Assembly (NCBI RefSeq): GCF_000025345.1 | Contig: NC_013757.1 | Coordinates: 1,302,001-1,366,000, forward strand | Direction: 5' to 3' | DNA: 64,000 bases | From: Geodermatophilus obscurus DSM 43160 | GTDB taxonomy: Bacteria; Actinomycetota; Actinomycetes; Mycobacteriales; Geodermatophilaceae | Shown here: positions 59,591 through 64,000 of the stretch, piece after piece | How the letters are laid out: the number at the start of each line of letters is the position of its first letter | Numbering within the stretch: the first letter of the stretch is position 1 | Position numbers and translations under genes: made by a program | The notes under the pieces: model-generated | Told to the model about the DNA's origin: nothing | The model's input: only the letters and a program-made list of their open reading frames with translations | The model's database searches: none

Positions 59591-59603
59591 CCACTGACAG
59601 TGG
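59591..59603. promoter_or_regulatory. Palindrome CCACTG-A-CAGTGG upstream of benA
   Basis: Perfect 6-bp arms 45 bp before the benA start. Possible binding site for the LysR protein or another regulator. Confidence 0.35.
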
Positions 59604-59647
59604 AGGGAGCGCACTCGACCCACTGCCCACTGGACCGGAGGTCCGCC

Positions 59648-61024
59648 ATGACAGTCGATGCCACCCAGCTGCACGACGTCCTCACCGATGCCGTGATCGA
59701 CGACCCCGAGGCCGGGGTCTACCGCGCCAACCGTCGGATCTTCACCGACGAGGAGGTCTTCGAGCTGGAGATGACCCACATCTTCGAGGGGAACTGGGTC
59801 TACCTCGCGCACGAGAGCCAGGTCCCGGACCCCGGGGACTACTTCACCACCTACATCGGCCGCCAGCCCGTCGTCATCACCCGCGACAAGCACGGCGAGC
59901 TGCACTGCCTGATCAACGCCTGCGCACACCGCGGGGCGATGCTCTGCCGCCGCAAGACGGACAACCGCATGACGCTGACCTGCCCGTTCCACGGCTGGAC
60001 GTTCCGCAACGACGGTGCCCTGCTGAAGGTCAAGGACCCCGACGGCGCCGGCTACCCGGGCAGTTTCAACAAGGACGGTTCGCACGACCTGGTCAAGGTG
60101 GCGCGGTTCGACAGCTACCGCGGGTTCCTCTTCGGCAGCGTCAACCCGGACGTGAGCACGCTCGCCGAGCACCTCGGTGACACCACCAAGGTCATCGACA
60201 TGCTCGTCGACCAGTCGCCGGAGGGGCTGGAGGTGCTGCGCGGCTCCTCGACCTACACCTACGACGGCAACTGGAAGGTCCAGGCGGAGAACGGCGCCGA
60301 CGGCTACCACGTCAGCGCGACCCACTGGAACTACGCGGCCACGACCTCGCGGCGCAGCACGGGCGAGTCGAAGAACACGACCAAGGCCCTGGACGCCGGC
60401 GGCTGGGGCAAGTCCGGTGGCGGCTACTGGTCCTACCCCAACGGGCACCTGTGCCTGTGGACCTGGGCGGCCAACCCGGAGGACCGCCCGCTGTGGGACC
60501 GCATGGACGAGCTCAAGGCGCAGTTCGGCGAGGCCAAGGGCGAGTTCATGATCAAGGGCTCCCGCAACCTGTGCCTCTACCCGAACGTCTACCTGATGGA
60601 CCAGTTCAGCACCCAGATCCGGCACTTCCGGCCGATCTCGCCCGAGCAGACCGAGGTCACCATCTACTGCATCGCCCCCAAGGGCGAGAGCGCCGAGGCC
60701 CGCGAGCACCGGATCCGCCAGTACGAGGACTTCTTCAACGCCTCGGGCATGGCCACGCCGGACGACCTGGAGGAGTTCCGCTCCTGCCAGCTCACCTTCC
60801 GGGCGACCGCCGCGCCCTGGAACGACATGAGCCGCGGTGCCGAGCACTGGCTGAACGGGCCGGACCCGGTCGCCGAGGCCCTCGGCATGGACGGCGTCAT
60901 CTCCGCGGGGCAGCGCAACGAGGACGAGGGGCTGTACCCGATCCAGCACGGCTACTGGCTGCAGACCATGCGCGCCGCACTCGAGAAGCGGTCCGGCGTG
61001 GCCACCGCGACTCCGGAGGGCTGA
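59648..61024 (+). CDS. benA: Benzoate 1,2-dioxygenase large (alpha) subunit
   Basis: 458-residue ring-hydroxylating oxygenase alpha subunit. The Rieske cluster motif is CAHRGAMLC (CxH) with CPFHGW (CxxH) 17 residues on. The mononuclear-iron region follows ([20 protein letters not shown], with the 2-His ligands). The [20 protein letters not shown] and the C-terminal segment match the benzoate/toluate subfamily. With BenB and the reductase it oxidises benzoate to the cis-diol carboxylate. ATG 59648 follows GGAGG at seven bases. First gene of the plus-strand ben operon. Confidence 0.95.
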
Positions 61025-61029
61025 CCGTC

Positions 61030-61578
61030 ATGACCGCCACGCAGAACCCCCAGCACGCCCCGGTCGAGGCAGCGCCCGCGGGCGGGAAGCTCATCACCCA
61101 GAACGCGATCGAGCAGTTCCTCTACCGCGAGGCCCGCTACCTCGACGACCGCGAGTTCGAGAAGTGGCTGGAGTGCTACGCCGACGACGTCGTCTTCTGG
61201 ATGCCGTCGTGGGCCGACGACGACCGGCTCACCGAGGACCCGCACCGGGAGATGTCCCTCATCTACTACTCGAACAAGGGGGGCCTGGAGGACCGCGTCT
61301 TCCGCATCCGCACCGAGCGCTCCAGCGCGACGTCGCTGCCCGAGCCGCGCACGAGTCACAACATCTCCAACGTCGAGGTCATCGAGCGCCGCGGCGACCT
61401 GGTCGACATCCGGTTCAACTGGCACACGATGTACTTCCGGTACAAGACCGTGGACCCCTACTACGGGACGTCGTTCTACACGATCGACTTCTCCGGGCCC
61501 GCGCCCCTCATCCGTCGCAAGACCGTGGTGCTCAAGAACGACTACATCCACCACGTCGTCGACGTCTACCACCTCTGA
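61030..61578 (+). CDS. benB: Benzoate 1,2-dioxygenase small (beta) subunit
   Basis: 182-residue beta subunit of a ring-hydroxylating dioxygenase: NAIEQFLYREARYLDDREFE, WLECYADDVVFWMPSWADDD, EMSLIYYSNKGGLEDRVFRI, SHNISNVEVIERRGD and YGTSFYTIDFSGPAPLIRRK. It has a structural role in the alpha3beta3 hexamer and contains no metal site. It begins five bases after the benA stop, with GGAGGG overlapping that stop, so the two subunits are tightly coupled. The reductase gene follows 18 bp later. Confidence 0.95.
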   Translation: MTATQNPQHAPVEAAPAGGKLITQNAIEQFLYREARYLDDREFEKWLECYADDVVFWMPSWADDDRLTEDPHREMSLIYYSNKGGLEDRVFRIRTERSSATSLPEPRTSHNISNVEVIERRGDLVDIRFNWHTMYFRYKTVDPYYGTSFYTIDFSGPAPLIRRKTVVLKNDYIHHVVDVYHL

Positions 61579-61596: not shown

Positions 61597-64000
61597 ATGG
61601 ACCATCGCGTTGCACTCGCGTTCGAGGACGGGGTCACCCGGTTCATCACCTGCCGCGAGGACCAGACCGTCGCCGACGCCTCCTACCGGGCGCGGATCAA
61701 CATCCCGCTGGACTGCCGTGACGGCGCCTGCGGGACCTGCAAGTCGCTCTGCGAGTCCGGCGAGTTCGACGGGGGCGCCTACCTCGAGGACGCGCTCTCG
61801 GCCGACGAGGCGGCCACCGGGTACGTGCTGCCCTGCAGCATGAAGCCGCGTTCGGACCTGGTGCTGCAGATCCCGACGACCTCGGCCGTGGCCAAGACCA
61901 GCGCCGCCACGCACCGCGGTCGCATCACCGTGCTGGACCGGCTCTCCCCGACCACCGTCGGCCTCACCGTCGAGATCGACGACCGGGACGCCCTGGCGTT
62001 CCTCCCTGGGCAGTACGTCAACATCGCCGTCCCCGGCACCGAGGAGTCCCGCTCGTACTCCTTCAGCAGCGCCCCGCAGGACGAGGCACTGACCTTCCTC
62101 GTGAAGCTGACACCCGGCGGCGTCATGTCCACGTACCTGGCAGAGCGCGCCGAGGTCGGGGACGAGATCACCTTCACCGGACCCCACGGCAGCTTCTTCC
62201 TCCGCGACTCCGACGCCCCGTTGCTGCTCCTGGCCGGCGGCACCGGGCTGGCGCCGGTCCTGTCCATCCTGCGGACCCTGGCGGGCAACCGCAGCGACCG
62301 CGGGATGCACCTCGTCTACGGCGTCACGACCGACGACGACCTCGTCGAGATGGACACCCTGGAGCAGCTCGCGGGCGCCATCGACGGACTCACCTGGGAC
62401 TACTGCGTCGCCGACCCCGCGACGACGGCACCCAACCAGGGCTACGTCACCGGCCTCTACGGGCCCGAGCACCTGCACGACGGGGATGCCGCGGTGTACC
62501 TCTGCGGCCCGCCGGCCATGGTCGAGGCGGTCCGCGGGCACGTCGCCGCGCTGGGGGTGGCCCCCTCGGGTTTCTACTACGAGAAGTTCGCGCTGGCCGC
62601 GGTCCCGACCGAGGCCGCCGGGGAGGTCGCCGGACCCGAGCCCGGGGCGGTCGTGCCGGAGCCCGAGGAGGTCGCTCCCGAGCCGCCGCCGGTGCCGGTG
62701 GTCGTGCCGGACACGGTCGCCGAGCTGCTGGCCCTGGACGGCCGGGAGGGCCGGACGTCGGCCGGGCAGGCCCTGTTCCCGCCGGTCGAGCTGTTCCCCC
62801 TCGGCGCCGACGCGGCGCGGCCGCGTGTTGAGTCGCCGGAGCAGATGTGGCGCGTGGCGGGACAGCGGATCGGGGAGCCGTTCCCCACCGGTGACGTCCT
62901 GCCCGTGGACGACGCCGACGACCTCGTGCCCGCCGTCGGCGCCCGCGCCGTCGCCGGTCAGGAGATGCTGCCCGAGGTGGCGCTGGAGCAGCTCACCCCA
63001 CCGACACCCGAGGCGCCGGCGGGTCAGGCGGACGCGGATCAGGCGGACGGAGATCAGGCGGACGCGGAGATCGAACCGGCGTTGACCGCCGAGGGCTACA
63101 CGATCACGGGCGACGGGTACGAGATCGGTGAGGAACACCCGTCCGTGCACGAGTCCGACGCCATCTTCGACGCCCGGCGGGCGCTGGAGCTGGGCGCGCT
63201 CGAGCTCACCATCGGTCGCCTGACGCACCAGCAGCTCGTCGGCTACCGGGTGCTGGCCGAGGCCACCGTGCCCTACGTCGAGGGCGACCGGTTCGTCGAC
63301 GCGGCGGCCTACACCGAGACCAACGCCGCCTTCCACGACTACCTGTTCACCCTCACCGGCAACGAGCACCTGCTGCGCGCCTACCAGGCGCTCGGCGTCA
63401 AGGGGCACATGGAGGAGTCGCTGCGCTCGGCCACCTGGGTGCACCCGCGGTGCGCGCAGGACCACCTCGACATCGTCGAGGCGTTCCGGAACGGCCACCG
63501 CGAGCGGGCACGGATCCTCGTCACCGAGCACGCGGAGCGGTCGAAGGAGACCACCCGACGGGCCATGCACGACCTCGCCGCGGGACGCCGTCCCCGGTTC
63601 GTCACGCCGGGCCGGTTCGCCGGCCAGGTGGTCCTGGTCACCGGTGCCGGCCAGGGGATCGGCCAGCGCACGGCCCGGCGAATCAGCGCGGAGGGCGGGA
63701 CCCTGGTGCTGGCCGACCGGGCGGAGCTCGTGCGCGACCTGGCCGGCGAGCTGACCCGTCCGGGCGCCGAGGCGGTCCCGGTGGTCGCCGACCTGGAGAC
63801 CTGGGAGGGCGCGTCCGCGGTCGTGGACGCCGCGCTGGCGCGGTTCGGCCGCATCGACGTCGCCGTCCACACCGTGGGCGGGACGATCTGGGCCAAGCCG
63901 TTCGAGCACTATCCGGCCGACCAGGTCCAGGCGGAGATCAGCCGTTCCCTGTGGCCGACGCTGTGGTGCTGCCGCGCCGTCGTCCCGCACATGGTCGAGC
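61597..64000 (+). CDS. BenC reductase-FCD domain-BenD dehydrogenase fusion, 3' end beyond window
   Basis: A single unbroken frame of 801 codons to the window edge. Residues 1-335 are a complete BenC: 2Fe-2S ferredoxin ligands Cys40, Cys45, Cys48, Cys80 (DCRDGACGTC), FAD motif RSYS (152-155), NAD motif GGTGLAP (214-220) and CGPPAM (303-308). Residues about 336-510 are a Pro/Glu/Asp/Val linker with QADADQAD repeats. Residues about 515-660 form an FCD domain (RRALELGALELTIGRL, NAAFHDYLFTLTGNEHLLRA, DHLDIVEAFRNGHRERARIL), normally the ligand-binding half of GntR regulators, but no winged helix precedes it. From 673 a short-chain dehydrogenase starts (RFAGQVVLVTGAGQGIG), as expected for BenD. The start ATG follows GGGGAG; no internal start with a ribosome-binding site was found. 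Confidence 0.92.
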   Translation, partial: MDHRVALAFEDGVTRFITCREDQTVADASYRARINIPLDCRDGACGTCKSLCESGEFDGGAYLEDALSADEAATGYVLPCSMKPRSDLVLQIPTTSAVAKTSAATHRGRITVLDRLSPTTVGLTVEIDDRDALAFLPGQYVNIAVPGTEESRSYSFSSAPQDEALTFLVKLTPGGVMSTYLAERAEVGDEITFTGPHGSFFLRDSDAPLLLLAGGTGLAPVLSILRTLAGNRSDRGMHLVYGVTTDDDLVEMDTLEQLAGAIDGLTWDYCVADPATTAPNQGYVTGLYGPEHLHDGDAAVYLCGPPAMVEAVRGHVAALGVAPSGFYYEKFALAAVPTEAAGEVAGPEPGAVVPEPEEVAPEPPPVPVVVPDTVAELLALDGREGRTSAGQALFPPVELFPLGADAARPRVESPEQMWRVAGQRIGEPFPTGDVLPVDDADDLVPAVGARAVAGQEMLPEVALEQLTPPTPEAPAGQADADQADGDQADAEIEPALTAEGYTITGDGYEIGEEHPSVHESDAIFDARRALELGALELTIGRLTHQQLVGYRVLAEATVPYVEGDRFVDAAAYTETNAAFHDYLFTLTGNEHLLRAYQALGVKGHMEESLRSATWVHPRCAQDHLDIVEAFRNGHRERARILVTEHAERSKETTRRAMHDLAAGRRPRFVTPGRFAGQVVLVTGAGQGIGQRTARRISAEGGTLVLADRAELVRDLAGELTRPGAEAVPVVADLETWEGASAVVDAALARFGRIDVAVHTVGGTIWAKPFEHYPADQVQAEISRSLWPTLWCCRAVVPHMVE

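What the first reader, a model, noticed from the sequence alone, without database searches (positions are those of the whole stretch)
61597..64000. BenC-FCD-BenD three-part fusion in the benzoate operon
One frame with no stop encodes the electron-transfer reductase of benzoate dioxygenase, a long acidic/Pro linker, an FCD domain lacking its DNA-binding partner, and the start of the diol dehydrogenase. In known ben operons benC and benD are separate, and FCD domains belong to GntR regulators that bind small carboxylates through a metal. A linked reductase and dehydrogenase could recycle NAD(H) locally: BenC uses NADH and BenD makes it. The FCD part may sense or hold benzoate, the diol or muconate. 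The codon-by-codon reading was checked to position 64000.
Basis: partly seen in the sequence, partly recalled or inferred. Interest (0 to 1): 0.87.

Follow-up and report, generated by a model that had tools for sequence, protein, structure and literature searches.

The report
Benzoate reductase-sensor-dehydrogenase fusion protein
In this soil actinobacterium two enzymes of benzoate breakdown are made as one protein with a small-molecule-sensing domain borrowed from gene regulators between them; the same three-part protein occurs across many actinobacteria, and the sensor part also occurs in other enzyme fusions, so a regulator's sensor seems to have become a working part of an enzyme.

Summary
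Confirmed and extended. One uninterrupted 928-codon frame (window 61597 to 383 nt past the window end) encodes BenC, a ~180-residue linker predicted disordered, an FCD domain without wHTH, and a complete BenD. BenC and BenD pass curated equivalog cut-offs; catalytic motifs are intact. It is no artefact: full-length orthologues occur in 10 of 60 relatives and over 100 database clusters, and a BenC tree places the three-part form in one branch. In a class sample, 11 of 13 genomes with BenC over the cut-off carry it. The FCD fold is supported by a confident model and Foldseek. It is as conserved as the enzymes and keeps an Asn-His-His-His set like the zinc site of VanR Atu1419, plus the helix-1 Arg. 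The same FCD also occurs as BenC-FCD without BenD and as BenC-FCD-cytochrome P450 in proteobacteria, so it is more than a BenC-BenD spacer. Most likely it is a metal-assisted binding site for a ring carboxylate (benzoate or its cis-diol) that gates electron delivery or holds the intermediate. That function is inferred, not tested. Recalled precedent: BopZ of Rhodococcus 19070. My paper searches found no account of the FCD identity.

The parts
61597..64000 (+). benC-FCD-benD fused gene (aa 1-801 of 928; runs 383 nt past the window end to a TGA)
61603..62592 (+). BenC reductase (2Fe-2S, FAD, NAD domains), aa 3-332
   Evidence: NCBIfam NF040810 470 bits over cut-off 430; Pfam Fer2, FAD_binding_6, NAD_binding_1
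62599..63141 (+). Ala/Pro/Glu/Gly-rich linker, aa 335-515, predicted disordered
   Evidence: pLDDT about 34 over most of residues 335-504 in the model of the 95%-identical P0001; median identity 29% over 45 fused loci
62752..62769 (+). Linker motif copy RTSAGQ, aa 386-391
   Evidence: motif found 210 times in 94 of 122 three-part linkers, shuffled mean 0.29; position from the column list
62944..62961 (+). Linker motif copy RAVAGQ, aa 450-455
63163..63537 (+). FCD domain (GntR effector-domain fold, no wHTH), aa 523-647
   Evidence: Pfam PF07729; AF2 pLDDT 88.9; Foldseek and VIA-align
63322..63531 (+). Predicted metal site N576, H580, H623, H645
   Evidence: conservation; same residue types and spacings as Zn ligands of Atu1419 and NanR
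63607..64000 (+). BenD diol dehydrogenase (SDR), aa 671-801 inside the window, complete to aa 928 beyond it
   Evidence: NCBIfam NF040811 418 bits over cut-off 380
61030..61578 (+). benB, 18 nt upstream
   Evidence: TIGR03232 268 bits over cut-off 225.6
59600..61024 (+). benA (longest frame; the true start may lie a little downstream)
   Evidence: TIGR03229 803 bits over cut-off 781

Best explanation
A BenC-type oxygenase reductase acquired the effector-binding half of a GntR-family regulator (BenC-FCD); in actinobacteria BenD was later joined to it, most likely once. SHOWN by sequence and model: BenC and BenD with intact motifs, an FCD fold with the residues of a metal site and the helix-1 Arg, a tether predicted disordered, constraint on the FCD as strong as on the enzymes. 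INFERRED: the FCD binds a metal and, through metal and Arg, a ring carboxylate of the pathway (benzoate, or the cis-diol, itself an alpha-hydroxy carboxylate). Occupancy then gates electron delivery by BenC to BenAB, or retains the diol for the tethered BenD. One chain also carries both halves of the NADH cycle: BenC spends NADH, BenD returns it.
For: N576/H580/H623/H645 match in type and in spacing (4 and 22) the Zn ligands of Atu1419 (Asn137, His141, His192, His214) and, with Asp for Asn, of NanR (Asp172, His176, His222, His244); NanR's Zn contacts the ligand's carboxyl and hydroxyl. N576 is Asn in 216 of 219 proteins, the three His hold in 219 of 219, 220 of 220 and 220 of 220, R527 in 218 of 218, across four architectures (gaps left out; proteins chosen by similarity). 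FCD identity and dN/dS are like those of the enzymes while the linker drifts. The FCD occurs with BenC without BenD, and between BenC and a P450. BenA and BenB lie upstream in 47 of 47 fused loci with room. Fold.
Against: No ligand or metal was tested. The conserved metal residues could be structural: the Atu1419 triple-His mutant melts at 34 instead of 52.6 degrees C. The two GntR proteins found with the nearest FCD have Asn in place of the last His (P0321, P0324), so pocket chemistry varies. Genome G401 has BenC and BenD apart with no FCD; five Arthrobacter loci and the class-sample genome G276 (BenC-like, 378 bits, under the cut-off) have none; so the FCD is dispensable in some lineages. 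P. youngii BenC-P450 has no FCD match, only, by my reading, a shrunken remnant. Equivalence of R527 with NanR Arg128 rests on motif position, not on a direct alignment. R610, H591 and C619 are (nearly) invariant only in the three-part form, so the ligand may differ between architectures. The sequence match to NanR is weak (E 0.0077; 6.4e-5 with a broader profile).
Confidence: 0.5

Rival explanations
1. The FCD is only an oligomerisation or scaffold module: it dimerises the chain as FCDs do in regulators; the metal is structural and no ligand matters.
For: In Atu1419 the zinc holds helices of the tetramer interface and stabilises the fold (passages). Such a module could sit next to BenD or a P450 alike.
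Against: R527, a ligand-side Arg in FCDs by motif position, is invariant. A median identity of 74% over 45 fused loci, above that of BenC and BenD, is more than I would expect of a scaffold. Neither point excludes it; which conserved residues lie on the surface was not examined.
Confidence: 0.27
2. The fusion exists mainly to couple NADH use (BenC) and NADH making (BenD), or to hand the unstable diol to BenD; the FCD is a leftover spacer.
For: Reaction stoichiometry from established pathway knowledge; both enzymes keep their motifs; the three-part form sits in one branch and is broadly kept.
Against: BenC-FCD without BenD exists outside the three-part branch, the FCD occurs with a P450 instead of BenD and is conserved like the enzymes. 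The linker is long and predicted disordered, pTM 0.40, so no fixed channel is predicted.
Confidence: 0.15
3. BenD is also made separately from an internal start (ATG at aa 657), so the fusion is partly nominal.
For: The residue equivalent to Met657 is ATG in 47 of 48 fused loci; the window copy has AGGAGA upstream, 5/6 match.
Against: Spacing is 14 nt in the window copy; 0 of 48 loci have a start with SD match of 5/6 at spacing 4-11 at the junction. The gene's own start scores only 4/6 at 13 nt, so a weak SD is not decisive.
Confidence: 0.05
4. The FCD still acts in transcription, for example by pairing with a wHTH protein to report pathway flux.
For: FCDs are regulator domains; a match to the neighbouring LAL-type regulator is present in 44 of 45 fused loci with room.
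Against: No wHTH in the chain; the same FCD occurs in the P450 fusion, beside an AraC-type gene instead.
Confidence: 0.03

Closest known systems
BenC / BenD of benzoate 1,2-dioxygenase operons (Pseudomonas type; solved BenC-type reductase 1krh)
   Same: Equivalog-level BenC and BenD with intact motifs; benA-benB upstream. 1krh was found with the Paraburkholderia chain P0121 as query, not with the window's
   Different: One chain instead of two, with an added linker and FCD
BopZ of Rhodococcus sp. 19070 (Haddad, Eby and Neidle 2001; content recalled, paper not held; only its entry in a reference list seen)
   Same: Recalled: a BenC-type reductase about 201 residues longer than BenC, active as reductase, C-terminus then unlike known proteins; fits BenC-FCD
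   Different: Recalled: its diol dehydrogenase BopL was a separate gene; BopZ itself was not compared here
FCD effector domains of GntR regulators: Atu1419 (VanR), NanR, LldR, DhdR, TM0439
   Same: Fold; metal-ligand residues as told for Atu1419, NanR, LldR and TM0439 in passages
   Different: No wHTH; joined to redox enzymes. Identity to the listed solved ones 10-22%
GntR proteins P0321 and P0324
   Same: The only 2 of 101 listed proteins whose Pfam list includes GntR; P0321 is 42% identical to the fused FCD over 122 residues
   Different: Carry the wHTH; last metal His is Asn
BenC-FCD-P450 proteins of Paraburkholderia and others
   Same: Same BenC (54%) and FCD (41% identity; one pair)
   Different: A cytochrome P450 in place of BenD; BenC-FCD linker of 0-14 residues
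Self-sufficient P450s (CYP116B, BM3; recalled)
   Same: Reductase covalently joined to a partner enzyme
   Different: Here the partner is the next pathway enzyme, not the oxygenase; a 2025 review states that no self-sufficient Rieske oxygenase has been identified yet (passages of PMC12445004)

Membership tests
BenC (benzoate dioxygenase reductase) | Score over the curated NCBIfam cut-off, Fer2 + FAD + NAD domains | tested here: met
   470 bits vs 430; Pfam domains
BenD (diol dehydrogenase) | Score over the curated cut-off; TGxxxGIG and YxxxK motifs | tested here: met
   418 bits vs 380; motifs
FCD domain | Pfam FCD over gathering score and FCD fold | tested here: met
Metal-binding FCD subgroup | Three His plus Asn/Asp at the ligand positions | tested here: met
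   N576, H580, H623, H645; definition from passages of PMC7797058; sequence only, no coordinates examined
Metal-binding FCD subgroup | Bound metal and effector | not testable with these tools
   needs purified protein
GntR transcription regulators | N-terminal wHTH DNA-binding domain | tested here: not met
   no GntR match up to E 0.01
BopZ-type BenC-FCD reductase | BenC followed by FCD, BenD separate | tested here: not met
   BenD is in the same frame; related BenC-FCD forms
Self-sufficient oxygenase | Oxygenase and reductase in one chain | tested here: not met
   BenA and BenB are separate genes

The most novel reading that the evidence does not exclude
BenC-FCD is a general ligand-gated electron-delivery module: a transcription-factor sensor domain re-used inside enzymes, where a bound ring carboxylate (with metal) switches electron flow to a Rieske oxygenase in trans or to a fused P450, and in actinobacteria holds the diol for tethered BenD. 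It would be a class of allosteric oxygenase reductases.
Probability: 0.3. Interest if true: 0.82.

Novelty: new variant of a known kind. Interest (0 to 1): 0.62.

Why it matters
FCD domains are known as effector halves of GntR regulators. Here one is kept, with its metal-site residues, inside a catabolic redox enzyme in two bacterial phyla and next to two different partner enzymes. If it binds substrate or product, it gives a ready test of ligand-gated electron transfer in Rieske oxygenase reductases, where O2 uncoupling is a recognised problem, and a natural part for engineered oxygenases and P450s. It also bears on annotation: the named records listed call the chain after BenC or the reductase, after the diol dehydrogenase, or plain oxidoreductase, none by both enzymes in the text shown.

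Tried and rejected
Assembly artefact or frameshift: rejected, full-length frame in 10 of 60 relatives and in many public clusters. Separate genes as the norm in this class: not borne out by the class sample. BenC-SDR without FCD as an extra architecture (P0221): set aside, it reads as a frameshifted copy; P0217 (BenB-BenC-FCD) likewise. P0217, P0045, P0187 and P0208 look frameshifted or truncated but were left among the 21 BenC-FCD rows, so about 17 of them are sound. Of the 8 FCD-P450 rows, P0190 and P0191 look like fragments. FCD tree to find the donor regulator: not resolved, GntR branches too long. The GntR of this genome whose FCD scored best against the fused FCDs lies, by my unverified reading of its open frames, beside transport and sugar-acid-like genes, not aromatic genes (L154). 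A cyclohexanecarboxylate role for the P450 fusion: neighbours in 2 of 5 loci resemble ChcB2/ChcC families but below the cut-offs; the names that do pass are generic (SDR subfamily 'glucose 1-dehydrogenase', FAD-dependent oxidoreductase PRK06134), and the neighbours are missing within reach in the other 3; kept as a lead only. Literature: ten answered searches (one search returned nothing); the seven that bear on FCD, BenC, BenD or their fusions listed no title or abstract start describing an FCD in BenC or a BenC-BenD fusion. I looked inside four papers, by passages only. Most subscription papers are not held. Model of the whole chain: pTM 0.40, so domain placement is not interpreted.

Full report
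OBSERVATION. The frame begins at ATG 61597, 18 nt after benB, and is open to the window end. The genome is one 5.3 Mb contig in which the window is C1:1302001-1366000. The frame continues 383 nt beyond the window and stops after 928 codons. A frame with LuxR-type HTH and AAA domain matches follows.

DOMAINS. NCBIfam calls aa 3-332 BenC (470 bits, cut-off 430) and aa 673-928 BenD (418 bits, cut-off 380); Pfam calls aa 523-647 FCD (53 bits, cut-off 24.3) and lists no GntR DNA-binding domain up to E 0.01. The catalytic motifs are in place, including YAAAK at 823.

NOT AN ARTEFACT. Among 60 sampled relatives, 10 (9 of the same genus, 1 of another genus of the family) carry the whole 928-residue match in one stop-free frame. 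In the family sample, 13 of 112 genomes (own included) have BenC over the cut-off, all in frames of 915-1128 codons (domains beyond BenC not re-checked there). In the class sample of 394 genomes, 27 have a match at E 1e-60 and 13 have one over the BenC cut-off; reading those 13 loci gives 11 three-part fusions (own included), 1 BenC-FCD with separate BenD (L124) and 1 BenC without FCD beside a separate BenD (L133). The 14 genomes with only matches below the cut-off were not counted as BenC; none of their loci that I read shows the FCD, and one of them, G276, is the closest to the cut-off (378 bits). A database search returned 978 proteins; of the 120 listed nearly all are three-part by their Pfam lists, from Geodermatophilus, Blastococcus, Pseudonocardia, Nocardioides, Kribbella, Amycolatopsis, Saccharopolyspora, Prauserella, Knoellia and others.

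HISTORY. On a tree of 138 BenC domains the 61 three-part rows fall in one branch of 63 rows (SH-aLRT 100). The two exceptions inside are L133, which lacks the FCD, and P0045, whose BenD part is out of frame. BenC-FCD forms lie outside that branch in the actinobacterial group, as do the five FCD-less Arthrobacter (quick method, midpoint root for drawing). The simplest reading is BenC-FCD first, BenD joined once. How the FCD came to BenC is less clear: the FCD-less Pseudomonas-type BenC lie between the P450 group and the actinobacterial group, so one gain with losses, and transfer or repeated gain, are all open. In G401 the BenC frame ends in a copy of the linker motif and the BenD domain starts about 20 nt further in another frame: it looks like a natural deletion of the FCD.

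THE FCD TRAVELS WITH BENC. Of 238 proteins (those listed by two searches plus the second query), my classification gives 122 BenC-FCD-BenD, 69 BenC-FCD-P450, 21 BenC-FCD, 16 BenC-P450 with no FCD match, 8 FCD-P450, 1 P450 only and 1 BenC only (doubtful rows named under Tried and rejected). The P450 group comes from Paraburkholderia, Burkholderia, Caballeronia, Cupriavidus, Sphingomonas, Rhodovulum and Pseudocitrobacter by the names given. In Paraburkholderia sp. FT54 the 929-residue chain passes the BenC cut-off (503 bits), then FCD, then P450. Its FCD is 41% identical to ours and its BenC 54%. P0192, a BenC-P450 form, has no FCD match, though I read a shortened FCD-like stretch in it. Kluyvera and Pseudocitrobacter have FCD-P450 chains; whether BenC is encoded next to them was not checked.

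CONSTRAINT. Against 45 fused loci (L044 on) the median identity to the window's copy is BenC 71%, FCD 74%, BenD 67%, linker 29%; median dN/dS 0.30, 0.29, 0.34 and 0.56. Among near relatives the FCD is the most conserved part by identity (96%), while by dN/dS BenD is lowest (0.155 against 0.181 for FCD and 0.205 for BenC; 12 rows, two of them repeats of the same genomes). An idle spacer would not look like this.

LINKER. In the full-length model of P0001, residues 335-504 are mostly below pLDDT 50 and pTM is 0.40, so the domains are best read as beads on a flexible tether. The linker carries a repeated short motif R-x-(V/I/S)-A-G-Q-x-(L/M/V)-(L/F)-P, whose R-x-x-A-G-Q core has 210 copies in 94 of 122 three-part linkers against a shuffled mean of 0.29; 28 of 122 have none. 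It is absent from 20 of 21 BenC-FCD and all 69 BenC-FCD-P450 linkers. Relatedness inflates the total, but two or more copies per linker in 89 of 122 shows real repetition. Its partner is unknown, and whether it occurs elsewhere in the genome was not established.

CONTEXT. BenA and BenB lie upstream in 47 of 47 fused loci with room, a match to the LAL-type regulator in 44 of 45, and to the LysR gene in 39 of 48.

MECHANISM. Shown: architecture, intact motifs, fold, metal-ligand residues, constraint, pairing with BenD and with P450. Inferred: metal binding; ligand binding; gating or retention. Benzoate's cis-diol is an alpha-hydroxy carboxylate (established chemistry), and NanR's zinc grips its ligand by carboxyl and hydroxyl; this favours the diol. 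The pairing with a P450, whose product need not be such a compound, favours the substrate carboxylate. I cannot decide between them. Against a ligand role: the metal may be structural, since the Atu1419 triple-His mutant melts at 34 instead of 52.6 degrees C, and lineages without the FCD exist.

INTERNAL START. An in-frame ATG at the place of aa 657 is present in 47 of 48 fused loci, but none of the 48 has a start with a near-complete SD at normal spacing at the junction. Separate BenD synthesis is not supported but not excluded.

KNOWN OR NEW. I recall that Haddad et al. 2001 reported a Rhodococcus reductase, BopZ, 201 residues longer than BenC with an unrecognised C-terminus and a separate dehydrogenase gene; that fits BenC-FCD. 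The paper is not held; only its reference was seen. Of ten answered paper searches, the seven on this subject listed no account of an FCD in BenC or of a BenC-BenD fusion; I judged by titles and abstract starts. Public databases already mark the Pfam domains, so the parts are visible, but the module and its second life with a P450 seem undescribed in what I could search. I rate it a new variant of a known kind.

Noticed in passing
L152:4999-7788 (Paraburkholderia sp. FT54); also L160-L163: BenC-FCD-cytochrome P450 chain, an apparently self-sufficient P450 with a BenC reductase in front; an AraC-type gene (HpaA-like, below cut-off) is adjacent in 5 of 5 loci.
   Followed up: partly
L152:8871-11469 and L162:1029-10705: SDR and FAD dehydrogenases near the P450 fusion in 2 of 5 loci resemble ChcB2 and ChcC families of cyclohexanecarboxylate breakdown, below curated cut-offs; generic families score higher.
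   Followed up: partly
L135-L138, L148: A BenC-like reductase with a further ~450 residues in frames of 843-921 codons in 5 genomes of the same order. In L148, the one scanned, the extra part has only weak, below-cut-off matches to FAD oxidoreductases.
   Followed up: partly
window 62752-62769 and 62944-62961; other linkers: Repeated A-G-Q-centred short motif in the linker, nearly confined to the three-part form; a possible docking motif with no known partner.
   Followed up: partly
P0229, P0231 linkers: BenC-FCD proteins with long linkers carrying a different repeat (ARPxGYxxPxPG-like).
   Followed up: no
L155:2751-4720 (G401): Apparent natural loss of the FCD, with BenC and BenD in separate frames and the BenD domain starting about 20 nt after the BenC stop: a ready comparison for function.
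   Followed up: partly
L010:9586-10545, about 6.6 kb past the window end: Collagen-like GXX-repeat protein frame of 319 codons.
   Followed up: no
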